From contig JAICXO010000012.1 of NCBI GenBank assembly GCA_025980335.1, forward strand, positions 1-34,846: 34,846 nt of DNA, in the 5' to 3' direction. Made by a program: the position numbers and the translations under genes. This DNA is from Sphingomonas sp. GTDB lineage: Bacteria; Pseudomonadota; Alphaproteobacteria; Sphingomonadales; Sphingomonadaceae. This document shows, one piece after another, positions 1 through 10,808 of this stretch (its first letter is position 1; each line of letters begins with the position of its first letter). The notes beneath the pieces are model-generated. The model did not search any database. It had not been told where the DNA came from and saw nothing but the letters and a program-made list of their open reading frames with translations.

Positions 1-539
1 ACGAGGATGCGCGCCATAGCCACCTTGTCCCGAACTGCGCGGCGGTTCTCAGGCAGGTCGGCTGTCGACAGCAAGGCTTGCAGCTGACGCGCATTTTGAC
101 GCTCCTCCATCAGCAGGTCCCGCCAATTGTCCAAGGCCGAATAGAGGCTTGCGTAGGTCAACCGATCGTTGAGCGGCACTCGCTCCGTCACGGAACTCGT
201 CTTGGCGAGATCCCAGGCGCTTGAATGCATGTTCCAGAGTTGAGGATTAAAGGCGTTGGACAATCGCGCGTCGGGTGGCGCCGTGGCAATCCAACGCTCG
301 ATCAGGTCGAGCCGATGAAGTGTGCACGGGTCCTCTGCCTGCATTTCCTCCCATCGGGCGCGGTCATCAGCCAGCTCGCCATCCAGGGCGCTGCGAAGCT
401 GGGCAAGCTGGTGCCGCGCGTGAATCGTCTCGGCGGCCTGTTCGGCACCAAGCGCGATGAGCACGCCGAGCACGATAATGCCGACCTCGCCAGCGAATTC
501 GCGCCACCCGTGCAGTGGCTTGGGAACGTGGAAATGCAT
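1..539 (-). CDS. MHFHLPKPLHGW-family single-pass membrane protein, partial (C-terminus beyond window edge)
   Basis: The gene reads leftward from an ATG at 539 and is still open at base 1, so about 179 codons are visible and the C-terminus is missing. It begins MHFHVPKPLHGWREFAGEV and continues with a hydrophobic helix (about residues 18-35, GIIVLGVLIALGAEQ), so it belongs to the same family as the five-gene array at 5751-9255. The soluble part, predicted outside the cytoplasmic membrane, has the family's first conserved Cys (EDPC, near residue 70). It also has the W and LTYASLY motifs near residues 115-135. It is separated from the array by about 5 kb of unrelated genes, so it is a dispersed member. 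Function is unknown. Family membership is certain from the shared N-terminus; topology is inferred. Confidence 0.85.
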   Translation of the reverse strand, partial: MHFHVPKPLHGWREFAGEVGIIVLGVLIALGAEQAAETIHARHQLAQLRSALDGELADDRARWEEMQAEDPCTLHRLDLIERWIATAPPDARLSNAFNPQLWNMHSSAWDLAKTSSVTERVPLNDRLTYASLYSALDNWRDLLMEERQNARQLQALLSTADLPENRRAVRDKVAMARIL

Positions 540-580
540 CTCAGCCGGACCCCGAGCGGTTACGTCACCGTAACAGAAGG

Positions 581-651
581 ACCTAATGGCAGGAATGGGT
601 CGAAAGCTGCCGCTCGCGCGGTAGCGGCAGGAATGGGTGGAAAGCGGACGC
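581..651. repeat. Nested-hairpin intergenic repeat, copy A
   Basis: The copy contains AATGGGTCGAAAG, an inner stem CTGCCGCT/AGCGGCAG, a second AATGGGTGGAAAG and the terminal GCGGAC. The left terminus is degenerate. Its right edge runs into the stop codon (TAG, minus strand) of the DUF4431-like gene. It fills the spacer upstream of the partial gene at 1-539. Confidence 0.85.
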
Positions 652-1079
652 TAGGGCAGCCGAACAGACTTGGCATTGAGGACCAGCGGCGCTCGATGAT
701 TGGCATTGTCCATCGGGTATCCGTCACCGCTGATGATCACTCGTCGGCCGACCATGCGGTGGAGCTTGCCTCGCACGCCCTTATCCAAGCTCCAGACGTG
801 AACAGTTCTGAATCTCTGGGACTGACCGAAGTCCCGGGCGTCGATGCAAACGGGCTGAGGGAGGGTGAGGATGAAGACAAGATCGTCTTTGTCGCCCTCG
901 CGGATGCTTGTGTAGTTTGGCGGACCGGGAAAGTGGCGCAGCGACAGTCGGCCTTCCGCAGCAAGCCCCACTCCGGTCCTGACGCAGCCATCCCTAGTTA
1001 CCTGCCCGCGAAGTTGCGCAACTGCTGGAACCGGGGTCGCCACAAGACATGTCGTCAGGAATAGAAGCGAAAGCCGCAT
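651..1079 (-). CDS. Secreted DUF4431-like protein
   Basis: This is a 142-residue protein with a clear Sec signal peptide (MRLSLLFLTTCLVATPVPAVAQ region, cleavage after the AVA box near residue 21), so the mature domain is periplasmic or secreted. The central segment FPGPPNYTSIREGD followed by LTLPQPVCID matches the pattern I know for DUF4431 (FPGPPNYES-x-GD, then L-x-L-x-P-x-C). Two Cys (GCVR and PVCID) could form a disulfide. I chose the ATG at 1079 because the upstream alternative is a TTG (1097) that would spoil the signal peptide. The stop codon lies at the edge of repeat copy A. Biochemical function is unknown. Confidence 0.75.
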   Translation of the reverse strand: MRLSLLFLTTCLVATPVPAVAQLRGQVTRDGCVRTGVGLAAEGRLSLRHFPGPPNYTSIREGDKDDLVFILTLPQPVCIDARDFGQSQRFRTVHVWSLDKGVRGKLHRMVGRRVIISGDGYPMDNANHRAPLVLNAKSVRLP

Positions 1080-1104
1080 CAGCGCAGCATCTCGCAAGCG
1101 AACA

Positions 1105-1170
1105 ATGTCTGCAATGGGTCGGAAGCCGCCACTCGCGCGGTAGCGGCAGGAATGGGTGGAAAGCGGACGC
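1105..1170. repeat. Nested-hairpin intergenic repeat, copy B
   Basis: This is a full copy: GTCTGC, AATGGGTCGGAAG, a G/C-rich inner hairpin, AATGGGTGGAAAG, then GCGGAC. It lies in the spacer between the DUF4431-like gene and the membrane protein gene at 1236, both of which read away from it. Confidence 0.85.
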
Positions 1171-1235
1171 TAGATTCGCCACTTGTGGGTTCATAGGGCT
1201 ATTGCCAAGTTGCGGGATTGGGGGAGCCTTCTTGA

Positions 1236-1724
1236 ATGACAATTTGGTTTGTCGGCCTAGTAACTCGCTCCAGTGCGGAGCGAGCTTCTAAATGGGGTGG
1301 CATCGCCTGTTTATTCCAAGGCGCCCGCGAGACGCTTGGTAGCCTTCTAACAGTCAACTTGGCAGGCAAGCCCGTCGACAATGCGATTGCATACCTCATT
1401 GGCACCAACCTTTTGCCGATCCTCCTACTTGTGGCGGGCATTCGCCTGTGGCGGCACGCTGGTTGGATTTGGGGAGGCGTGGCAGGCCTTATCGTAGCTT
1501 CTGAACTTGCGGCCGCTCTAATTGCCCCAGCGGCAGTGACCAATGCTTACACGCCGATTGTCGCCAAGGTTGCACCATCACCATCGATCGCAGCGGACGC
1601 TGCGTTGGTCGCGGCGTTCGTAGTCAAGATCGCGATACTGGCCCTGATAGCCAACGGGATACGAGGGGCGCTCGCACTGCGAAGGGCTGATAAATCAAAC
1701 GACGTGCAGGATTCTTTCTCCTAA
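1236..1724 (+). CDS. Small multi-pass membrane protein of unknown function
   Basis: This 162-residue protein has hydrophobic stretches around residues 45-67, 74-97 and 120-145, so probably three or four membrane helices. The rest is short loops and a charged tail ending in RRADKSNDVQDSFS. A GGGGGAG motif upstream of the ATG supports the start. I recognise no family. Its spacers carry repeat copies B (upstream) and C (downstream). Coding potential is supported by the coherent hydrophobic pattern and by the absence of a better overlapping frame. Confidence 0.6.
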   Translation: MTIWFVGLVTRSSAERASKWGGIACLFQGARETLGSLLTVNLAGKPVDNAIAYLIGTNLLPILLLVAGIRLWRHAGWIWGGVAGLIVASELAAALIAPAAVTNAYTPIVAKVAPSPSIAADAALVAAFVVKIAILALIANGIRGALALRRADKSNDVQDSFS

Positions 1725-1736
1725 TCCCCGCTAGTG

Positions 1737-1798
1737 TGAGCTTTGGGTCGAAAGCTGCCGCTCGCGGTAGCGGCAGGAATGGGTGGAAAGCTGACATT
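1737..1798. repeat. Nested-hairpin intergenic repeat, copy C
   Basis: The copy has a TTGGGTCGAAAG half, an inner stem CTGCCGCT/AGCGGTAGCGGCAG with a shortened loop, then AATGGGTGGAAAG and GCTGACATT. The right edge overlaps the stop codon (TGA, minus strand at 1798-1800) of the next gene. It sits between convergent genes. Confidence 0.8.
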
Positions 1799-2280
1799 CA
1801 ACCGGCGCTACGGCGGCGAATGATTATCCCGAGGTTGAACGCCGCGCCGAACCCGAGGTCCATCAATATGCGGACGATGACGACGTAGACGAACGCCTCC
1901 AGGGCATGGCTCACCCCTCGTCCCGCTACCGCCGTGGCAACGATTGCGACCAATAACGCCAGCGTGGCCCCAAGAAGCCCGAACCGCGCCAAGAGCCAAA
2001 AACGTATCCACGGCTGGAGGGCGAGAGGGATGAAATCATCATCTTTCGGCTGGCTCGGAAGATAGCCAACCAATCGGAGGCGCAAAATGCCAGCGACAAG
2101 CGACGCGACCAAAGCGGCCAGAATGGGCCACACGATGTATCCGACGAGAGCGCCCATTGAGGGGCCGAGGAAGGCAATCCCGAGAGCGAGAGCTACTGAC
2201 CCGAGCGCCACGCCAGCCGCTACGCGATAGATTGTTGCCTTCGGAACCGCTCGTGCGGTGGTTCTCAAAACGCCGTTCAT
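1798..2280 (-). CDS. Small membrane protein of unknown function
   Basis: The ORF encodes 160 residues from an ATG at 2280. Hydrophobic segments occur near residues 17-38 and 42-66, and again near 92-115 and 122-150. The polar segment LPSQPKDDDFIPLA lies between the two halves, suggesting four helices with a central loop. It ends in RRRSAG. No family is recognised. The 3' end coincides with repeat copy C, and the start is separated from copy D by about 25 bases. Another minus-strand membrane protein gene lies upstream (2368-2868), so the two may be co-transcribed through the repeat. Confidence 0.65.
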   Translation of the reverse strand: MNGVLRTTARAVPKATIYRVAAGVALGSVALALGIAFLGPSMGALVGYIVWPILAALVASLVAGILRLRLVGYLPSQPKDDDFIPLALQPWIRFWLLARFGLLGATLALLVAIVATAVAGRGVSHALEAFVYVVIVRILMDLGFGAAFNLGIIIRRRSAG

Positions 2281-2303
2281 GGCCGTAGCTTATCCGGATG
2301 GCG

Positions 2304-2368
2304 AATGTCCGCAATGGGTCGAAAGCTGCCATTCGCGCCAACGGCAGGAATGGGTGGAAAGCGGACAC
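2304..2368. repeat. Nested-hairpin intergenic repeat, copy D (best-conserved ends)
   Basis: The copy reads AATGTCCGC at the left and GCGGACACT at the right, with two AATGGGT-GAAA direct repeats and a partly decayed inner stem (CTGCC/GGCAG) between. Its right end supplies the TAG stop of the minus-strand gene at 2368. Confidence 0.88.
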
Positions 2369-2868
2369 TACGGCCCCGCAGGATCGCACGCCGCGGCAGT
2401 CATTTCAGTGGCTTTTTTGCAGGACGGGTTCGTCGCTGATGCCGCGCTGGCATTCAGCGGCGGAACGCTAATAAAGAACCAGATCAGCATTCCACCGAAC
2501 AATGCCGCGCTTACGGCTCGTACAGCCAATCTTGTTGTCGTCGAGGCATGCCTAAACTGCTTTTTGAACCGTTCGCCACGCGGCCCGTCTAGCCAAATCC
2601 AATGAACCAGCTGCACCGCAAGATAAAGGCCAACGGCATCCGTCTTGGTCGTCAACATTGTTCGCGGCAGGATGGCCAACAATGTTAAGAAGTCCAATAG
2701 GGAGAGTATCAGGACCCCGTTGAAGCGGTTGAACCCATTACGGTCCACACCGGACCACGAAGGGGCGTTAAATGACCAGACGAGGAGGAATGGCCAAAGA
2801 TAGATGAGGGCTAACAGGAGTCCGGGCGTAATCTCCGTCTCCCTCTTGCGGTGAACTACAGGCCCCAC
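2368..2868 (-). CDS. Membrane protein of unknown function
   Basis: The ORF encodes 166 residues. Hydrophobic stretches lie near residues 16-33, 52-68, 80-93 (VGLYLAVQLVHWIWL) and 115-133, so it is probably a four-helix membrane protein. The C-terminal tail has two Cys (NPSCKK, AACDPAGP). The track start is a GTG (2868); no convincing ribosome site is visible, and the true start could be one of the next two GTG codons. The final codons and stop come from repeat copy D, so the C-terminus may have been reshaped by repeat insertion. No family is recognised. Confidence 0.6.
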   Translation of the reverse strand: MGPVVHRKRETEITPGLLLALIYLWPFLLVWSFNAPSWSGVDRNGFNRFNGVLILSLLDFLTLLAILPRTMLTTKTDAVGLYLAVQLVHWIWLDGPRGERFKKQFRHASTTTRLAVRAVSAALFGGMLIWFFISVPPLNASAASATNPSCKKATEMTAAACDPAGP

Positions 2869-2894
2869 GGCCTCATGGTCGCATGCAGCACTAG

Positions 2895-2924
2895 TGTCTG
2901 CAATGGGTCGAAAGCTGCCGCTCA
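2895..2924. repeat. Nested-hairpin intergenic repeat, copy E (left half only)
   Basis: GTGTCTGCAATGGGTCGAAAGCTGCCGCT elements match the left arm of the family. The right arm with AATGGGTGGAAAGCGGAC is missing before the S41 peptidase stop at 2949. Confidence 0.75.
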
Positions 2925-2948
2925 GGCCGAGCTTTCGCCAATCCTGCT

Positions 2949-4301
2949 CTACTGCCCCGCGGGCGCCGGTCGCATCATTGCTCCCTGGACCTTGCCCTCG
3001 GCATCGAGCGAGATGTCGACGATGATCGCGCCATTCGCAAATGCGGCCCGGTACTCGTCGCCCCCCATCGCGCCGACGTCCTCGAATTTGATCGAACGAA
3101 ACGCGCCGAGCGGCAGCAGGAACGTCTGTCGCAAGGTGGGCAGGTGCTCGCGGTTGAAGCTCGCGAATTCAGGGGTCATCGACGCGTAATCGGGGTTTCC
3201 GCTGACGAGCCCGGCGATGAATTGCCGAGCAATTGCCTCGGACCCGGGGAGAGGAGTCGATCGGGGCGCAAATACCTGCTTGAGTGAGGCGCTGGCGATT
3301 TCGGCCGCCGGCTTTTGGCCCAACTTTCGCAGTGCGACCGTCAGCGCATCTTGCGCTGAGACAGGCACATCGGGCTGAACGCCGCGTCCTTCCCAGTTCG
3401 TCTGAGTAATCGGGCTTTCCGGCCGGCCCCACGGGATGCTTGCCTCCAAGCCGTGGCCGAGATCGACCGGTCCTGTGGGATTTGCGCCCCCACCGGTTAC
3501 TTCTCCGACGATCTTCCCCAGCTTGTGCGTCTGCACGTCGTACGCAAGTTCCTCGCCACCGGAGAAGGTGTTCTTGCTTGTCAGGACGTAAACCGGAATT
3601 TTGGCAAAGCTTACCGGCGTCGGCTGGCTCGAAAACCTCTGACGCTTGAAAGTGTTTGTCTTCGGCTCTCGCGCGACAATGTCGTTGATCTCGATCGGTC
3701 GGTTCGGCGGAACCAGAAAGCTTACGAGATAATCGACCCCGTCAGGCGATCCTCCGCCGTTCCGGCGATCGTCAATGATGAGTGCGCGGCTGCCCTTGAG
3801 CGCCAACATGGCCTTGTCGATCGTGGGTTTGAACGCCGGCAAAGGCGGAAAGCCGATCACTTCGATATAGCCGACGCCGCCAGCAAGCTTGTCGGCGCGA
3901 ACGACACCCGCTTCTGACCGCGGCAATTCGGCGGCCGAACCAGCTGCTTGAGGCGGCGGCGCGTCCACCGCGGTGATCCTCAGGTGCTTGTCGTGCGCAA
4001 CCGCGGCAACGTCGGCGGAGAGCCGCGCTGCAAAGGAACTGGGATCGGAAAGACTGTCGTAGTCACCGGCGGAAAGCGCGGCGCCGATCTTTTCCGCTGC
4101 CTTTGCGCCGACGTCCGGGAAGACGTAATTTTCCCGGAGCGCATCGCTCAGCTTTGCGACGATATCGTGCCGCATGCTGCTGTCGATGGTGTCGGCAGGA
4201 GGCGCGGCAACGTGCGGCGTTGCTCCTGCCTGCGTCTGTGCTGCGGTTGCCGATAATGGAGAAGCAGCCAGGCTCAGGACTATCAAGACTGGAACGCGCA
4301 T
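2949..4301 (-). CDS. Secreted S41-family (IRBP/tail-specific-like) serine peptidase
   Basis: This 450-residue protein has a Sec signal peptide (MRVPVLIVLSLAASPLSATAA). A helical S41 N-terminal domain spans about residues 40-110 (KLSDALRENYVFPD), followed by the S41 catalytic core (about 130-310). The core includes IIDDRRNGGG near 175-184 and TSKNTFSGGEE near 241-251, where the Ser of TFSGG is the expected nucleophile. The motif GRGVQPDVPV marks the end of the core. A C-terminal domain of about 100 residues (GSEAIARQFIAGL onward) resembles DUF3887/SnoaL-like add-on domains. There is no obvious PDZ domain, as in the IRBP-like branch. The start is supported by GGGGG six bases upstream of the ATG. 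It probably cleaves peptides in the periplasm; the substrate is unknown. Confidence 0.88.
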   Translation of the reverse strand: MRVPVLIVLSLAASPLSATAAQTQAGATPHVAAPPADTIDSSMRHDIVAKLSDALRENYVFPDVGAKAAEKIGAALSAGDYDSLSDPSSFAARLSADVAAVAHDKHLRITAVDAPPPQAAGSAAELPRSEAGVVRADKLAGGVGYIEVIGFPPLPAFKPTIDKAMLALKGSRALIIDDRRNGGGSPDGVDYLVSFLVPPNRPIEINDIVAREPKTNTFKRQRFSSQPTPVSFAKIPVYVLTSKNTFSGGEELAYDVQTHKLGKIVGEVTGGGANPTGPVDLGHGLEASIPWGRPESPITQTNWEGRGVQPDVPVSAQDALTVALRKLGQKPAAEIASASLKQVFAPRSTPLPGSEAIARQFIAGLVSGNPDYASMTPEFASFNREHLPTLRQTFLLPLGAFRSIKFEDVGAMGGDEYRAAFANGAIIVDISLDAEGKVQGAMMRPAPAGQ

Positions 4302-4353
4302 CGTCTACCCCCGCTGCTGATCAACTCAGGTGCCCATTCTGCGACGCAGGGCG

Positions 4354-4385
4354 AATGTCCGCAATGGGTCGAAGCTGTCACTGAG
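4354..4385. repeat. Nested-hairpin intergenic repeat, copy F (left half only)
   Basis: AATGTCCGCAATGGGTCGAAGCTGTC matches the left arm of the family. No right arm is present. It lies between the S41 peptidase start and the stop of the membrane protein gene at 4414. Confidence 0.75.
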
Positions 4386-4413
4386 CAAAGCGCTGTTGGT
4401 CGCCGTGACGATC

Positions 4414-5022
4414 TCATCCGTAGCCGTATTGGCGGGCGAGGGCGTTCTGGATTGACCCCTGGTCCCAATAAGGGATCATGATCAGCAGCAGCAGCACGAT
4501 AAGAAGCACGATATTCGCACGGCGCGAGCGCAAAAACATGATCGCAACCATCGAGGCTTCGATCGCCAAATTGTAGGGGACCGTCCACAGCCAAAAGAGC
4601 TCCGGCTGGTGCGCGATCCGCTGTTCGAAGACGTGAAGGTACGTGACGTGGATCAGCATCTCGCCGGCGAGCAAGAGACCGACGACGAAGCGCTTCCGCT
4701 CCGCGTAATAATCGGCGAGCCGTTCGTGGTCGGCATCGTCGTGCGGGAAGACGGTGGCGGCGGCGAGATAAAAGCAGATGGCGAGCAGGACCGGCGCCCA
4801 GAGGCCGGCGAAATCCACCGAAACGTGCTTGAGGGTAAGCCAGCTGTCGACCCAGGTGGAGCAGATGTCGACGAGGATGAAGAGCGCGAGCAGCGCCGTC
4901 TGCGGCTCGAGCTTCTTCAGCGCCTTCGCGCGGACCATGTGCGCGAACCCGCCGAGCAGCTCCGTCAGCCCCAATCCCAGGATCAGGCTGTAGAAGGCAA
5001 CGAAATAGGTAAAGCTGTCCAC
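4414..5022 (-). CDS. Multi-pass membrane protein, paralogue of the divergent neighbour at 5136
   Basis: Starting from the GTG at 5022 gives 202 residues beginning VDSFTYFVAFYSLILGLGL. The GTG is preceded by a G-rich ribosome site (GGGGGGCGACCGA). The longer reading to 5115 adds an Arg/Ser-rich stretch that looks non-coding. Hydrophobic segments near 1-25, 43-62, 70-95, 115-135, 150-165 and 170-190 suggest five or six helices. The first about 65 residues align by eye with the divergent gene at 5136 (FYSLILGLGLTELLGG against LYSLLLGLALAHLLSG; both then TALLAL). So the two are paralogues sharing one short promoter region. Function is unknown. Confidence 0.75.
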   Translation of the reverse strand: MDSFTYFVAFYSLILGLGLTELLGGFAHMVRAKALKKLEPQTALLALFILVDICSTWVDSWLTLKHVSVDFAGLWAPVLLAICFYLAAATVFPHDDADHERLADYYAERKRFVVGLLLAGEMLIHVTYLHVFEQRIAHQPELFWLWTVPYNLAIEASMVAIMFLRSRRANIVLLIVLLLLIMIPYWDQGSIQNALARQYGYG

Positions 5023-5135
5023 TCGGTCGCCCCCCAGCGGTAAGGACACGTAACAGAAGAGTCGGCGTCTGCAACGGCTGGAGGGGCGTTTGCTGCTGTC
5101 GGCGAATGGCTGCATGAACAGCCTTGGGGGGCATG

Positions 5136-5705
5136 ATGAGCGTCTTCGAATATGTGTTCTCGCTCTACTCCTTGCTGCTCGGGCTAGCTCTGGCGCATCT
5201 GCTGAGCGGGCTTGCCAAGGTCGTGGAAGCCAATGGCAAGGTCCGGCTGGGCTGGCCGACCGCGCTTCTGGCGTTACTCATGATGTCCAGTCTGACGATC
5301 TTCTGGGAGATCGCCTGGCGGGCACGCGACGCTGTGCCGGACAATTCGGCCGCACTCTTTGCATCGCTGGTCATTTGCAGCCTGCTGTACTTCGCAGCCG
5401 TCCTGGTCTTGCCCAGCGATCCAGCTCGACGCGGCGATTTGGATGACCATTTCTTCGCCGAGAAAGGGAAGGTGCTCGGGTGCCTGCTCGTCGCGAACAT
5501 CCTGGCCTACGGATCGCGGTACGCGCTGATGGGCTGGAAAAGCTTCTCTTACTTCAGCTGGGCGGATTGGGCTGAGCTTTCGCTGTTCCTGGCTGGTTGC
5601 GCCGCCGGCATCTTCGTGAATGCGCGGAGGCCGATCATCGCGATCCTGGCGGTTCTTCTGTTTCTGAACTTGCTCGACCCGGTTTCAACTTTGTTGGAGC
5701 GCTAG
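5136..5705 (+). CDS. Multi-pass membrane protein, paralogue of 4414-5022
   Basis: The protein has 189 residues, MSVFEYVFSLYSLLLGLAL onward, with about six hydrophobic segments and short charged loops. The upstream GGGGGG favours the ATG at 5136, although the ATG at 5133 is also possible; the TTG at 5124 is unlikely. It shares with its neighbour the pattern of a short N-terminus, YSL-LLGL-L--LL-G, TALLAL, a mid-helix W, and an acidic DD/DH-containing loop (DPARRGDLDDHFF against HDDADHERLADYY). The 3' end faces the MHFHLPKPLHGW array, 45 bases away and convergent. Function is unknown. Confidence 0.75.
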   Translation: MSVFEYVFSLYSLLLGLALAHLLSGLAKVVEANGKVRLGWPTALLALLMMSSLTIFWEIAWRARDAVPDNSAALFASLVICSLLYFAAVLVLPSDPARRGDLDDHFFAEKGKVLGCLLVANILAYGSRYALMGWKSFSYFSWADWAELSLFLAGCAAGIFVNARRPIIAILAVLLFLNLLDPVSTLLER

Positions 5706-5750: not shown

Positions 5751-6416
5751 CTAGCCTTGCAGTGGCCGGCACAGCCGATGCACGTCGACGCGAACCGGCA
5801 CTCCCGCCGGGTCGGCCTCGACGCCAAGCTGGTCGAGCCGGACCAGCAACGAGCGGCCGTTCGTCTCGCGACCCGCGAGATGCAGCCTCGCGCTCGCAAC
5901 CTCGCGCTCGATCCCGGCGCGGACCTCCGGCCGGTCGGCGCTTGCCAGCGTCGCGGCGAGATCGGTCCAGCTCCGCTGCTCGTCGAACAAATAGCGCTGC
6001 TCGTTGGCGATGGCGTCGTACGTCTCAGCGTATTTCAGCTGCTCGTTCAGCGAAAAGTGCCCCGCTGTCGGGCTGGTCTTCGTTATATCCCATGTGCTCG
6101 TGTGGTAATTCCACAGGAGAGGCTGATCGGCATTGGCGATCCGCGCGCCGGCGGGTGCCGTCGCGGCCCAGCGCAGGATCGCGTCGAGGCGCACGTTCAT
6201 GCAGCTGTCCTGCGCAAGATTGACCTCCAGCCGCTTCCGATCGATGCCGAGCTCGGAGCGCATCGCCTGCCGCGTCTGTGAGACGCTTTCCCGCCAGTGA
6301 ATGGACTCGACCACCTGCTCGGCGCCGAGCGCGATCAGCACGCCGAGCACGATGATCCCGACCTCGCCGGCGAACGCGCGCCAGCCGTGCAGCGGTTTGG
6401 GAAGGTGGAAGTGCAT
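5751..6416 (-). CDS. MHFHLPKPLHGW-family membrane protein, array member 5 (last)
   Basis: The protein has 221 residues. The N-terminus MHFHLPKPLHGWRAFAGEV is followed by one hydrophobic helix (about 18-36, GIIVLGVLIALGAEQVVE), then a helical, mostly polar domain predicted to be periplasmic. Family marks in order are HWR (near 40), DSC (near 71), STW (near 108), LNEQLKYAETYDAIAN (near 123-140) and a C-terminal LCRPL, four residues before the end. The start codon follows the upstream gene's TAG with no gap, so translation is probably coupled. The helix region resembles by eye the GEIxLVVIGILIALQxNNW segment of Bacteroidota DUF6090 proteins. Function is unknown. Confidence 0.85.
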   Translation of the reverse strand: MHFHLPKPLHGWRAFAGEVGIIVLGVLIALGAEQVVESIHWRESVSQTRQAMRSELGIDRKRLEVNLAQDSCMNVRLDAILRWAATAPAGARIANADQPLLWNYHTSTWDITKTSPTAGHFSLNEQLKYAETYDAIANEQRYLFDEQRSWTDLAATLASADRPEVRAGIEREVASARLHLAGRETNGRSLLVRLDQLGVEADPAGVPVRVDVHRLCRPLQG

Positions 6417-7112
6417 CTAAGCCGTTCCCGCCGGGGGGAGCAGCGGCTCGCAGAACTCGCGAGGCGGTGTCGAGATATCGCCCGCAAATCTGCCGAAGCT
6501 CGGTCGAAGCCCGAGGGTCGCCGTATCCGTCCGAAAGTCATGTTGATCCCCAACGATCAAACGATCGAGCGTCCTCGCTCGGAAGATCAGCTCGTCAAGC
6601 CGGACGAGATCCCCGGAACTGAGCTTCGTCGCGTGGTCGAAGCCGTTGAGATTAAGCCAGGTATCCCGTTCGCCTTCGATCAGCTCCCATTGGTTCGCGA
6701 TGAGGTCGTAGAGATCGGAATAGGCCAGCCTGGCCTGGATCGGGACGTGCGCGGGAAGGTCGGCGCCGCGTGAATTCCAGACAGACGTATCGGTGTTGAT
6801 CCTGCGCGGAAAACCAATCGCTCGCAGCAGCGGCATCGAGTGGCCGGAACGCTGGGCCGCGCTCCAGCGGTCGAGCTCCGCGAGCCGGCGCTCGACGCAG
6901 GGGCTTTCCCGAACCCGATATTCACCGGCTGCAAGATTGAACTCGAGCTCGACGTCGACCGCCGTGCGGAAATCGCGCACGTCGATCCGCCAGTGCAGGT
7001 CCTGAACGACCGACTCCGCGCCGAGCGCGATCAGGACGCCGAGCACGATGATTCCCACTTCGCCGGCGAACTCGCGCCAGCCGTGCAGCGGCTGGGGGAG
7101 GTGGAAGTGCAT
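6417..7112 (-). CDS. MHFHLPKPLHGW-family membrane protein, array member 4
   Basis: The protein has 231 residues and starts MHFHLPQPLHGWREFAGEV, with a helix at about 18-34. The predicted outer domain carries HWR, SPC (near 72), SVW, VPIQARLAYSDLYDLIAN and a C-terminal EFCEPLLPP. The ATG directly abuts the preceding gene's TAA, and a strong GGGGGAG ribosome site lies in the last codons of that upstream gene. The outer domain differs from its neighbours far more than the first 40 residues do. It is the middle of a likely single transcript starting upstream of 9255. Function is unknown. Confidence 0.85.
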   Translation of the reverse strand: MHFHLPQPLHGWREFAGEVGIIVLGVLIALGAESVVQDLHWRIDVRDFRTAVDVELEFNLAAGEYRVRESPCVERRLAELDRWSAAQRSGHSMPLLRAIGFPRRINTDTSVWNSRGADLPAHVPIQARLAYSDLYDLIANQWELIEGERDTWLNLNGFDHATKLSSGDLVRLDELIFRARTLDRLIVGDQHDFRTDTATLGLRPSFGRFAGDISTPPREFCEPLLPPAGTA

Positions 7113-7823
7113 TTAGCGCTCCCCCGCTCGATCGCTGTTCGGGAGAAGGGGTTTGCAAAACTCGTCGCCGTAACCCGCCACCCCAAAGACTTCTTTCAGT
7201 GTGAATTGGTCCGGCTTTTGACCGACGTTCGTGGTCCGCAAAATGTACGGCGCGATGGACGCAAGCCTGCCATCAATTGCAATCGCCTGCGCCAGCGCCT
7301 GCCGAAGCCCCGCCAGATCGGTCGTCGACAATCGCGATTTCTGGTCGAGAACGTCGAGTCGAGTCCAAGCGTCAAACTCCTGCCGCCGGATTGCATCCCA
7401 ATTGTCGGAGTTGGCGAACGCGCCACTGAAATCGAGCTGTTCCTGGATCGGCATGTGCGAGAGCGCGTCACCCGTCAGCGCGATGTTCCATGCTCCTTTG
7501 GCGCCTCCGTTCGGCAACGGAAACCCGACACTGGTTGCAAGTTTCGGCTGTATGCCACGGTCGGCCTCGTCAAGAATTCGCGAGAGCTCTCGCAGGCGGA
7601 CGCGAACGCACGGCTCAAGCAGCATTCGCACCTTCACTGAGTCGAGATTTCCGACCACCTCGCTCTGTAGCGCTCCGCGCTCAAGCCGAACCTGCTCACG
7701 CCAGTGCGCCGCCTGCACAAGCTGATCGCCCCCGAGCGCGATCAGGATTCCAAGCACGACGATCCCCACCTCGCCGGCGAACTCGCGCCAGCCATGCAGC
7801 GGCTTGGGGAGATGGAAGTGCAT
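7113..7823 (-). CDS. MHFHLPKPLHGW-family membrane protein, array member 3
   Basis: The protein has 236 residues: N-terminus MHFHLPKPLHGWREFAGEV, a helix GIVVLGILIALGGDQ, then HWREQVRLER. Next come EPC (near 70), GAWNIA, MPIQEQLDFSGAF and a C-terminal EFCKPLLP. The spacing of the two Cys matches the other members, consistent with an intramolecular disulfide in an oxidising compartment (inference). The start lies three bases after the previous gene's TGA. The LYD-IAN motif of its siblings is changed here to FANSDNW, so this member has diverged in the central domain. Confidence 0.85.
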   Translation of the reverse strand: MHFHLPKPLHGWREFAGEVGIVVLGILIALGGDQLVQAAHWREQVRLERGALQSEVVGNLDSVKVRMLLEPCVRVRLRELSRILDEADRGIQPKLATSVGFPLPNGGAKGAWNIALTGDALSHMPIQEQLDFSGAFANSDNWDAIRRQEFDAWTRLDVLDQKSRLSTTDLAGLRQALAQAIAIDGRLASIAPYILRTTNVGQKPDQFTLKEVFGVAGYGDEFCKPLLPNSDRAGER

Positions 7824-7826
7824 GGC

Positions 7827-8564
7827 TCAGCCCAGGTCCAGTGGAAGGTCGGTGCGGACGCATGTCCCGCGATAGGAGCGCTGTTGGTCTATCGATTCCC
7901 GAACGCCCCTTGGATCGGCAGTGAGCCCCGCAAGTCGCGCGTCTTTCAGCAAGACCTGGGCCTGGAACAACATGCGGGCATCGAGTGCATCGAGCTTGGC
8001 GACGACCTTGAGATTAGCCCGCCGCTCCGCGGGCGTGATCGGCCCGGCAAACGCGAGGTCTCCGAGCGTAGCCGCGGTGTCCACCTCTTCTCCCTGCGTT
8101 CGTTCAAGAGCTGTAACCTCGTCGAACAGCAAGGCGAATTGCTGAACCCGCGCCGGGTCGAAATGGTTGAGCACATCACTGTTCAACGCGGTCAGCCATG
8201 ATGCCTCGACGAAGGGACGATCAGGGGTACGGTACACGCTCGGAAAACCTGACTTATAAGGGTCATTCGCGAAGTGGGACCGGCTACCGGGCCAGTTGAG
8301 GCCGCCGTTCAGCAACTCGTCGCGAAGTTCCGCGAGGCGAGGCCGCAGGCACGGATCGATCGCGGAACGCTCATAAGCGAAGGCCAAGTCATAGCGCAGA
8401 TCTTGGCGCATCCGTCGATCGGTGTCGCGAACCGCGTGGCGCCAATGCTCGATCTCGACCAGCTGTTCGGCCCCGAGCGCTATCAGCACGCCAAGCACGA
8501 TGATCGCCACCTCACCAACGAACTCGCGCCAGCCGTGAAGCGGCTTGGGAAGATGGAAATGCAT
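7827..8564 (-). CDS. MHFHLPKPLHGW-family membrane protein, array member 2 (most divergent outer domain)
   Basis: This is the longest of the complete members, at 245 residues. The N-terminal 40 residues keep the family pattern (MHFHLPKPLHGWREFVGEV, a helix with AIIVLGVLIALGAEQ, HWR). The first Cys is kept in DPC (near 71). The central motif is weak (ASWLTALNSDVLNHF, then ALLFDEVTALE). The last Cys is in GTCVRTDLPLDLG instead of the usual FCKPL. A helical stretch near 155-215 is rich in Ala, Leu and charged residues. Its start follows the upstream gene's TGA by a single base, so it is tightly coupled. Function is unknown. Confidence 0.85.
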   Translation of the reverse strand: MHFHLPKPLHGWREFVGEVAIIVLGVLIALGAEQLVEIEHWRHAVRDTDRRMRQDLRYDLAFAYERSAIDPCLRPRLAELRDELLNGGLNWPGSRSHFANDPYKSGFPSVYRTPDRPFVEASWLTALNSDVLNHFDPARVQQFALLFDEVTALERTQGEEVDTAATLGDLAFAGPITPAERRANLKVVAKLDALDARMLFQAQVLLKDARLAGLTADPRGVRESIDQQRSYRGTCVRTDLPLDLG

Positions 8565-8565
8565 G

Positions 8566-9255
8566 TCAGCCCCTCGTCCCCGTTTTGGTGGAGAGGATCG
8601 GTTTGCAGATGCTCGGATCGTAGGGCAGGAAGTCGTCCCAGATCGGCTTTACGCCGATCGCGGCGGCGCGCTTCAAATAGTCCATCGCGTTGTTGGTGAT
8701 GTGGGCCTGGCGATAGCGTGCCCGGTTGATCAGCCCTTGAAGCCGCATCAAGTCGGCGTGGTCGAGGTCGCTGGCGCCGTTGAACTGGCCGAGCTCGAGC
8801 CACGCCTCCCGCTCGTCGAGCCGGTGCACTTCGTTGTTGGCGAACTCGTCGTACATCCTTCCGATCGTCAGCCGTTCCTGCATCGGCATGTGCGTGACGA
8901 TGTTCGCATCCCTGCTTTGCCAAGCGCTGGTTTCAAGGCTCAGCGACGAGGGTGCGCCGATGGGTCCGGTAAGCGTCAGCGGGTGACCGGCCCGCCAGCT
9001 TGCGAGCAAGCGATCGAGTTCGTGGAGGCGAGCGTCGACGCACGGATTCTCCCTCATCCGATAGGTATAGGTGCCGAGATCGCTCGCGATCTCGTGGTCG
9101 ACCGAGTTTCGGAAAAGGCCGACTTCATGCCGCCAGTGTAGCGTCTCGACGACCTGCTCTGCGGCCAGCGCGATCAGCACGCCGACCACGATGATTCCAA
9201 CTTCACCGGCGAACTCGCGCCAGCCGTGCAGCGGTTTGGGAAGATGGAAATGCAT
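8566..9255 (-). CDS. MHFHLPKPLHGW-family membrane protein, array member 1 (promoter-proximal)
   Basis: The first gene of the five-gene array encodes 229 residues, beginning MHFHLPKPLHGWREFAGEV with a helix GIIVVGVLIALAAEQVVE. The outer domain has HWRHEV, NPC (near 71), SAW, MPMQERLTIGRMYDEFANN and a C-terminal SICKPILS. A GGGGGGC stretch about 10 bases upstream of the ATG is a plausible ribosome site. The promoter must lie in the roughly 200-base spacer to the right, which also contains a diverged copy of the nested-hairpin repeat. Topology (N-terminus inside, domain outside) is inferred from the Lys/Arg before the helix. Confidence 0.85.
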   Translation of the reverse strand: MHFHLPKPLHGWREFAGEVGIIVVGVLIALAAEQVVETLHWRHEVGLFRNSVDHEIASDLGTYTYRMRENPCVDARLHELDRLLASWRAGHPLTLTGPIGAPSSLSLETSAWQSRDANIVTHMPMQERLTIGRMYDEFANNEVHRLDEREAWLELGQFNGASDLDHADLMRLQGLINRARYRQAHITNNAMDYLKRAAAIGVKPIWDDFLPYDPSICKPILSTKTGTRG

Positions 9256-9300
9256 GCGATGTGCCCCCCGGCAAGCGCAGGCTAACAGATGTCAGGAGCA

Positions 9301-9386
9301 GGGCAATGGGTCGAGGCTGATGGCCGGGGACGGGTCGAAGGCGGACCTAGGCGGCGGCGGCAGCTTTGGGCGGAAAGCGGACACTG
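9301..9386. repeat. Nested-hairpin intergenic repeat, copy G (diverged)
   Basis: CAATGGGTCGAGGCTG, then GACGGGTCGAAGGCGGAC, then CTTTGGGCGGAAAGCGGACAC show three family-like units in a scrambled order. It occupies the spacer between the array promoter region and the inverted-repeat unit at 9465. Confidence 0.6.
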
Positions 9387-9464: not shown

Positions 9465-9535
9465 GAACCTCCCTGTTGCGAAGCAATGGGGAGGGGAACC
9501 ACTCAGCCGCGAGGCTGAGTGGTGGAGGGGCCAGC
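9465..9535. repeat. Left terminal inverted repeat of the DUF559 unit
   Basis: This 71-base segment begins GAACCTCCCTG and ends GGTGGAGGGGCCAGC. Its reverse complement matches 9881-9950 over nearly the full length. It contains a perfect internal hairpin, ACCACTCAGC/GCTGAGTGGT. The last codons and stop of the DUF559 gene lie inside it. Confidence 0.85.
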
Positions 9536-9877
9536 GGCGCTCCCGCAAAGGCGATAGATTCCGTCCGCGACTGCTTCGGGATCCGCAAGAACCTCCGCTG
9601 CAGGAACCCGAACCACCCTGAGCCCGAGCGAGGCCATGTAAGCGTCGCGCCTTCCGTCGGCGTCCTGGCGCTCATTGTGATTCGCGCCGTCGATCTCGAT
9701 GACCGTCCTGGCGGACGGGCAGTAGAAATCGGCGACGAACGGGCCAATCGCACGTTGCCTGCTGAAGCGGAGCTCGCGTCGGCTAAGACGCAGCAATCGC
9801 CAGAGCAGCATTTCGGGCAAGCTGAGCTGTCGTCGGAGCCGTCTGGCCGATGTCATCGACCGTGCTGTTGCTCGCAT
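9503..9877 (-). CDS. DUF559-family endonuclease-domain protein
   Basis: This 124-residue protein has the DUF559 (Vsr-like, PD-(D/E)XK fold) layout. LSLPEMLLWRLLR lies near 18-30 and FSRQRAIGPFVADFY near 38-52. The catalytic-type segment VIEIDGANH lies near 59-68, followed by RRDAYMASLGLRVVRVPAAEVL near 76-97. The Asp of VADF, the Glu of VIEIDG and the nearby His are the likely metal-site residues. The ribosome site (GGAGG) comes from the right inverted repeat. The last nine residues (GPSTTQPRG) and the stop come from the left inverted repeat, so the reading frame is fitted to the repeat pair. Members of this family are common in sphingomonads; their function is unproven, possibly DNA cleavage or repair. 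Confidence 0.85.
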   Translation of the reverse strand: MRATARSMTSARRLRRQLSLPEMLLWRLLRLSRRELRFSRQRAIGPFVADFYCPSARTVIEIDGANHNERQDADGRRDAYMASLGLRVVRVPAAEVLADPEAVADGIYRLCGSAAGPSTTQPRG

Positions 9878-9950: not shown

Positions 9951-10730
9951 TTACTTGCCCCGCTTCTTGCGGTGCTCGTCGAGGTCGAGCACTGCGAAAT
10001 CCTCGTCGGGCTGGAGGAGGCCGAGGCGGCGGGCGACTTCCTGGTAGGCTTCCTCGACTCCGCCGAGGTCCTGGCGGAAGCGGTCCTTGTCGAGCTTGTT
10101 GTTGGTCTTGGCGTCCCACAGGCGGCAGCCGTCGGGGCTGATCTCGTCGGCGAGGATCACGCGGGCATAGTCGCCGTCGTACACCCGGCCGAACTCGAGC
10201 TTGAAATCGACCAGCCGGATGCCGATCGCCGCGAACATGCCCGACAGGAAGTCGTTCACCCGGATCGCCATGTCGGCGATATCGTTCATCTCTTCCTGCG
10301 TCGCCCAGCCGAAGCAGGCGATATGCTCGTCGGCGATCATCGGGTCGCCGAGCGCATCGTCCTTGTAATAATATTCGATGATCGTCCGCGGCAGCTGGGT
10401 GCCTTCCTCGATCCCGAGGCGCTTGGATAGCGAGCCCGCGGCGACGTTGCGCACCACGACCTCGATCGGGATGATCTCGACCTGGCGGATCAGCTGCTCG
10501 CGCATGTTGACGCGGCGGATGAAATGGGTCGGGACGCCGATCGTCTGGAGCGCGGTGAAGATGTGCTCCGAGATGCGGTTGTTGATCACACCCTTGCCGT
10601 TGATCGTGCCGCGCTTCTGCGCGTTGAACGCGGTCGCGTCGTCCTTGAAATACTGGATGAGCGTGCCCGGCTCGGGACCCTCGTAGAGGATCTTGGCCTT
10701 GCCCTCGTAAATCTGGCGGCGGCGAGCCAC
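9951..10730 (-). CDS. purC: Phosphoribosylaminoimidazole-succinocarboxamide (SAICAR) synthase
   Basis: The enzyme joins aspartate to CAIR using ATP in de novo purine synthesis, in the cytoplasm. The sequence shows [19 protein letters not shown] at the start and [14 protein letters not shown] for the ATP/substrate loop. [20 protein letters not shown] and LVDFKLEFG follow, then [15 protein letters not shown], all diagnostic of PurC. I start it at the GTG at 10730 (259 residues), which matches the usual family N-terminus and has a GGAG site upstream. A GTG four codons earlier (10742) overlaps that GGAG and is less likely. The gene appears monocistronic and ends at the inverted repeat of the DUF559 unit. 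Confidence 0.96.
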
Positions 10731-10808
10731 GGTTCGCGTCACTCCATCGGCATGCGGAAAGGAGCGGCGGCTATAGGCGAGCCGCCGCCCCTCCGCAATT
10801 GATTGCCC

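What the first reader, a model, noticed from the sequence alone, without database searches (positions are those of the whole stretch)
5751..9255. Five-gene tandem array of an unnamed single-pass membrane protein family with near-invariant N-terminus
Seen: five consecutive genes (plus a sixth at 1-539) all begin MHFHLPKPLHGWREF-like, followed by a GEVGIIVLGVLIALGAEQ helix and HWR, while the rest of each protein is highly diverged. Gene spacing is 0, 0, 3 and 1 bases. The conserved N-terminus includes a cytoplasmic tail and the membrane helix, not just a signal. That pattern suggests a shared partner inside the membrane or cytoplasm and variable outer domains that see different ligands. The helix motif resembles by eye Bacteroidota DUF6090 (inference). 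I know of no named function.
Basis: partly seen in the sequence, partly recalled or inferred. Interest (0 to 1): 0.78.

Follow-up and report, generated by a model that had tools for sequence, protein, structure and literature searches.

The report
Expanded unnamed membrane protein family
A bacterium related to Sphingomonas carries about two dozen copies of an unnamed small membrane protein that share one membrane anchor but differ widely in the part outside the membrane; many of them also share one switch-on signal, which looks like a repertoire of binding proteins with unknown targets.

Summary
Five minus-strand ORFs (9255..5751) plus one cut by the contig end (539..3) share a near-invariant N-terminus. 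They belong to a genome-wide set: 25 N-terminal matches, 23 aligned. No consistent Pfam, NCBIfam, PADLOC, PHROG or PDB relative was found. AlphaFold (pLDDT 92) gives one 77-residue helix from the membrane into a helical outer domain. Of 89 longer members 87 have exactly two outer cysteines; E18, G25 and A29 are invariant in 93 of 93. Own paralogs intermix with those of other genomes; copying within this genome is not supported. New here: a promoter-like module precedes many, not all, copies in several genomes, and some genes of a second Pfam-dark, roughly six-TM family flanking the array. The array sits where 22 of 28 relatives' purC loci have one other gene. Best reading: a repertoire of periplasmic receptor or protection proteins on a common anchor. 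Targets and partner are unknown; the DUF6090 membership test is not met.

The parts
8566..9255 (-). MHFH-family gene g6, first of the array; model: helix 12-88 (anchor plus outer helix 1), helices 125-158 and 166-199; Cys72 and Cys217
7827..8564 (-). MHFH-family gene g5
7113..7823 (-). MHFH-family gene g4
6417..7112 (-). MHFH-family gene g3
5751..6416 (-). MHFH-family gene g2, last of the array
3..539 (-). MHFH-family gene g1, cut by the contig end; outer part 44% identical to g2
9264..9316 (-). promoter-like module directly upstream of g6; no model hit upstream of g5, g4, g3 or g2, so one transcription unit is inferred
548..604 (-). promoter-like module upstream of g1 (strong with R1, which was trained on it; only E 0.06 with R2)
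4414..5022 (-). second dark family, about 6 TM helices by eye, GTG start
5032..5082 (-). the same promoter-like module upstream of the six-TM gene at 4414-5022 (in neither training set)
9503..9877 (-). DUF559 protein between purC and the array
9951..10742 (-). purC (name recalled from its sequence), edge of the conserved chromosome

Best explanation
The array is one transcription unit of a large, old, accessory protein family. Each member is inserted N-in by a common anchor (basic tail, then a helix with invariant E18, G25, A29) and exposes to the periplasm a helical outer domain, inferred to be stapled by one disulfide. Shown: gene layout, family size, conserved residues, predicted fold of one member, a conserved upstream module, a variable junction beside purC. 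Inferred: the module is a promoter; the anchor docks to itself or to a shared membrane partner, with the six-TM family that uses the same module as leading candidate; the divergent outer domains bind different periplasmic targets, so the genome carries a repertoire. The most likely use is protection of, or sensing at, the cell envelope against varying molecules.
For: E18, G25 and A29 in 93 of 93 members and exactly two outer cysteines in 87 of 89 members of at least 205 aa. Model of g6 with mean pLDDT 92.3, one continuous helix 12-88. No excess of synonymous identity within this genome over that between genomes beyond 0.02-0.04. Old paralogs: 21 own and 32 other rows need 18 label changes against a shuffled mean of 16.7. 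The module was found directly upstream of 5 of 35 family loci outside its training set (L208, L200, L228, L219, L222) and in 0 of 27 purC control loci, 93 kb. A model trained only on other genomes (R2) recovers 9 of the 12 own sites at E < 0.01 and the window's six-TM site at E 6e-6, in 196 kb that was fetched mostly around family genes. Three of 30 six-TM loci have the module at the gene start. On C14 a six-TM and an MHFH gene follow each other behind the module and a 22-codon MHFH-like leader. Copy numbers of the two families correlate in 60 relatives (Spearman 0.44, not corrected for kinship).
Against: No ligand, partner, toxin or phenotype is known. Only 31 of 62 examined upstream stretches were good enough to enter the module model; R2 missed the C127 and C69 sites and gave g1 E 0.06; 30 of 35 unseen family loci gave no hit. 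The two families are rarely adjacent: in 11 long-contig genomes 1 of 25 MHFH genes has a six-TM gene within 2 kb (expected 0.155) and 2 of 25 within 5 kb (expected 0.385); 7 of 24 MHFH-bearing genus genomes gave no six-TM match; co-occurrence is borderline (one-sided Fisher p 0.049). The start is closer to own paralogs than to the nearest outer-domain relative elsewhere in only 10 of 21 genomes, so a lineage-specific partner is not shown. In other genomes same-genome pairs have 0.69 synonymous identity in codons 1-18 (14 pairs). No fold match at E <= 0.001. Disulfide and topology are inferred.
Confidence: 0.4

Rival explanations
1. Orphan immunity repertoire: each outer domain neutralises one periplasm-acting toxin from competitors; arrays of old divergent members gather in variable places.
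For: Patchy distribution (24 of 61 genus genomes including the own; 1-5 copies in the other 23); array members come from different old branches; variable junction at purC.
Against: No toxin family named among the neighbours scanned; no consistent PADLOC match (two single-member hits of 30, best E 0.01) and no PHROG match at E <= 0.01; one common anchor for all members is unusual for immunity sets (recalled).
Confidence: 0.2
2. Periplasmic sensors that signal through the six-TM family.
For: Continuous helix from the membrane into a helical bundle; shared module and one shared gene cluster; the weak Foldseek list includes NarQ and Tar/Tsr sensor bundles.
Against: Those hits have E 0.46 or worse, and the best hit (E 0.24) is a microtubule protein; 7 of 24 MHFH genomes gave no six-TM match; no output domain found on either protein.
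Confidence: 0.17
3. Cassette-like recombining genes: the module plus the conserved 5-prime end is homology that spreads copies and swaps outer domains.
For: Most single copies whose neighbours were scanned sit beside unrelated housekeeping genes; module or palindrome-like copies also lie just 3-prime of the gene in four loci (L065, L068, L069, L070); palindrome-like repeats cluster in the accessory part of the window.
Against: No clear within-genome homogenisation at synonymous sites in the own genome; no recombinase among the proteins scanned; no empty site was aligned base by base.
Confidence: 0.13
4. The N-terminus is only a targeting/insertion signal and the outer domains are unrelated in role.
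For: It covers tail plus helix, as a signal anchor does.
Against: E18, G25, A29 in 93 of 93 members of several lineages is more than a signal anchor needs (the need is judged from recall); the outer domain keeps its cysteines.
Confidence: 0.1

Closest known systems
DUF6090 (PF19578), family of unknown function (Bacteroidota-rich by recall)
   Same: Short N-terminal helix of similar pattern followed by a W-containing motif; aligns in register over columns 11-63.
   Different: 0 of 30 members match the Pfam model at E <= 10; the own genome has a separate gene over the DUF6090 cut-off without the MHFHLPKPLHGW tail.
NarQ / Tar-type periplasmic helical sensor domains
   Same: Long helix continuous with the membrane helix.
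   Different: One membrane helix, no output domain found, no significant fold match.
Orphan immunity gene arrays (recalled, no call)
   Same: Tandem, divergent, patchy.
   Different: Common conserved anchor and a module of its own; no cognate toxin seen among the neighbours scanned.

Membership tests
DUF6090 (PF19578) | score over the Pfam gathering cut-off (23.5 bits) | tested here: not met
   no PF19578 hit for 30 members at E <= 10 or the 6 window proteins at E <= 1
DUF6090 (PF19578) | related anchor motif | tested here: inconclusive
   hhalign probability 11.5%, 53 columns in register against one member
polymorphic-toxin immunity set | cognate toxin gene beside it | tested here: inconclusive
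   no toxin family named in the neighbours scanned, but not every neighbour of every copy was scanned and several have no Pfam hit
polymorphic-toxin immunity set | protects against a toxin | not testable with these tools
   needs bench work
four-helix periplasmic sensors | significant fold match | tested here: not met
   0 PDB matches at E <= 0.001 for the g6 model
integron gene cassettes | attC site and integrase | not tested
   GTTAGGC in some modules fits the recalled GTTRRRY core; no attC structure or integrase test was run

The most novel reading that the evidence does not exclude
Two undescribed membrane families, a single-pass periplasmic repertoire with a constant anchor and a six-TM partner, form one envelope system under a promoter of its own. 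Its members are gained, lost and assembled into arrays like cassettes, giving each strain its own set of outer domains.
Probability: 0.22. Interest if true: 0.8.

Novelty: new variant of a known kind. Interest (0 to 1): 0.55.

Why it matters
A family with no consistent match in the libraries searched fills about two dozen genes of a 2.4 Mb draft genome and recurs, expanded, in at least one other alphaproteobacterial family (G657: 7 matches, the number scored). Constant-anchor, variable-outside families often mark an arms race or ligand diversity (general knowledge). The shared module and the six-TM family turn an unnamed ORF set into a testable two-part hypothesis.

Tried and rejected
Gene conversion within the own genome as cause of the constant start: 4-fold-site identity within it is only 0.02-0.04 above that between genomes, so not supported there; the 14 same-genome pairs of other genomes (0.69 in codons 1-18, several of them tandem) leave it open elsewhere. 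Recent tandem duplication: not supported by the tree or by 15-44% outer identity. EcfG-type promoter: a search for GGAAC-N-GTT upstream of 21 own starts printed none. Start tracks the genome (lineage-specific partner): 10 of 21 genomes for, 11 against; not claimed. Conserved neighbour: no family recurs among the 20 proteins scanned, apart from one M48 peptidase and one M56 with a weak M48 match. Weak library hits set aside: single-member Pfam hits (best E 0.004), PADLOC (best E 0.01), DinQ far below its cut-off (NCBIfam was searched with the six window proteins only), one PDB sequence at E 0.93. Literature: 0 papers with 'DUF6090' or 'HLPKPLHGW'; two further listings gave nothing on point (listings only, no paper read). 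Rfam, window only: 0. The second structure job (six-TM protein) was still unfinished at the last poll, so no model of it is used. The pdb_via library was not available and the viral fold library was not searched.

Full report
Observation. The shared start and helix are confirmed. Pfam and NCBIfam gave no match near a cut-off for the six proteins.

Family. In the own draft genome (2.37 Mb, 83% complete, 4.99% contamination) the N-terminus has 25 matches on 16 contigs. I aligned 23, leaving out a 27-codon stub at the end of C97, whose upstream flank nearly equals that of the C41 copy, and a 22-codon leader on C14. In the genus sample 24 of 61 genomes including the own have a match, the other 23 with 1-5 each. 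By profile 19 of 249 family genomes match, with at most 11 candidates scored per genome. At class level 1 of 289 (the own) by single sequence and 3 of 385 by profile with at most 7 scored: the own, G657 with 7 matches (one with two stops), and G563 with one weak match holding a stop. Copy numbers are lower bounds. The draft genome is in many pieces, so its copy number is approximate.

Anatomy. Over 93 distinct members from 30 genomes, E18, G25 and A29 never vary. Of 89 members of at least 205 aa, 87 have exactly two cysteines after residue 40; C72 is aligned in 88 of 93, and a cysteine near C217 in 84 of 89. The g6 model (30 sequences, mean pLDDT 92.3, pTM 0.81) has a helix 12-88 and two further long helices; only this member was modelled. 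Foldseek gave 0 matches at E <= 0.001, the best (E 0.24) a microtubule protein, with sensor bundles among many coiled coils below. N-in topology and a disulfide are inferences.

Why the start is constant. Fourfold-site identity is 0.60 (codons 1-18) and 0.49 (19-45) within the own genome, 0.56 and 0.47 between own and other genomes, 0.52 and 0.44 among others, and 0.33-0.36 in the rest, near the 0.33-0.38 expected from codon usage. So the excess is not special to the own genome and points to constraint on the 5-prime end. Against this, 14 same-genome pairs of other genomes reach 0.69 in codons 1-18 (0.45 in 19-45), so local copying there is possible. In the tree of outer parts own and other rows are as mixed as shuffled labels. 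Six of the G657 members share a start of MDIHKPK type of their own, but across 21 genomes the start follows the genome in 10 and the outer part in 11.

Promoter-like module. Upstream stretches show TTGCGG, 10 bases, TTCTGTTAGGCT, then often a G-run, 19-27 bases before the start. I read it by eye as TTGCGG-N16-TAGGCT with an extended -10; no transcript data exist here. Of 62 upstream stretches listed (12 own, 19 other) entered model R1; the scan motif was made after seeing the sequences, and shuffled stretches reach 13.9 at the 99% level against 17.8 or more for the own sites used. R1 scored 17 own-genome places at E < 0.02 (150 of 515 candidates scored): the 12 training sites, two six-TM genes, one M48-peptidase gene that precedes a family member, and two places just 3-prime of family genes. 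The non-circular model R2 (19 sites of other genomes), over 196 kb fetched mostly around family genes, gave 12 places at E < 0.001: 8 upstream of family genes or their cluster, one upstream of the window's six-TM gene, three just downstream of family genes. Two own sites (C127, C69) were missed and g1 had E 0.06. On 37 family loci, two of them training sites, R1 found 5 of the 35 unseen ones, and none of the six G657 loci. On 30 six-TM loci it gave five hits, three at gene starts, one of these the own C63 copy. On 27 purC loci, 93 kb, it gave none. Some lone copies lack it (for example L025).

Second family. Window 4414-5022 and 5133-5705 belong to a family of about 190 residues without a Pfam match, with 11 matches in the own genome and matches in 34 of 61 genus genomes. 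On C14 a module, a 22-codon MHFH-like leader overlapping the six-TM start by 4 bases, the six-TM gene and an MHFH gene follow one another; the divergent gene is a winged-helix/TPR regulator with a similar site. Association elsewhere is weak.

Setting. Of 28 purC loci from 27 relatives, 22 have one same gene as first or second called gene downstream (priA by recall of its sequence), including the closest relative at 201 bases; of the other six, four share a different gene. The own locus has DUF559 and the array there. So this junction varies in the genus, and the array is an accessory insertion or the result of a rearrangement; flanks were 1.5 kb. Other copies whose neighbours were scanned lie beside unrelated genes, mostly housekeeping, one near a phage terminase.

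Verdict. The family is undescribed as far as the libraries and the searches go. Function remains inferred.

Noticed in passing
window 606-4375 (minus), also L068, L069, L070: Palindrome-like intergenic repeat with loop CTTTCSACCCATT and varying arms (GCGGACATT or CTGCCATTA). 10 of 12 window hits lie in 1-4400, the others at 9377 and 34593; 66 hits over all loci scanned against 15 in the reversed control. Its right half resembles the -35 half of the module.
   Followed up: partly
L067:1461-3407 (own contig C14): Trans_reg_C plus TPR regulator divergent from the six-TM/MHFH cluster, with a similar promoter-like site.
   Followed up: partly
L046:6001-6960: Family start and helix run directly into a frame of about 280 residues that the family profile does not match; fusion or assembly chimera.
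   Followed up: no
L065, L068, L069, L070: Module or palindrome half also lies within about 60 bases 3-prime of the MHFH gene in the same orientation; no MHFH-like remnant was found in the 700 bases (or less) behind it.
   Followed up: partly
L074:824-1582 and 3663-4211 (own contig C135): A gene over the DUF6090 cut-off lies about 2 kb from a six-TM family gene, with a DNA polymerase III gamma/tau gene between.
   Followed up: no
L066:3633-4922 (own contig C63): A phage-type terminase large subunit gene lies about 1.3 kb from the MHFH gene L016.
   Followed up: no
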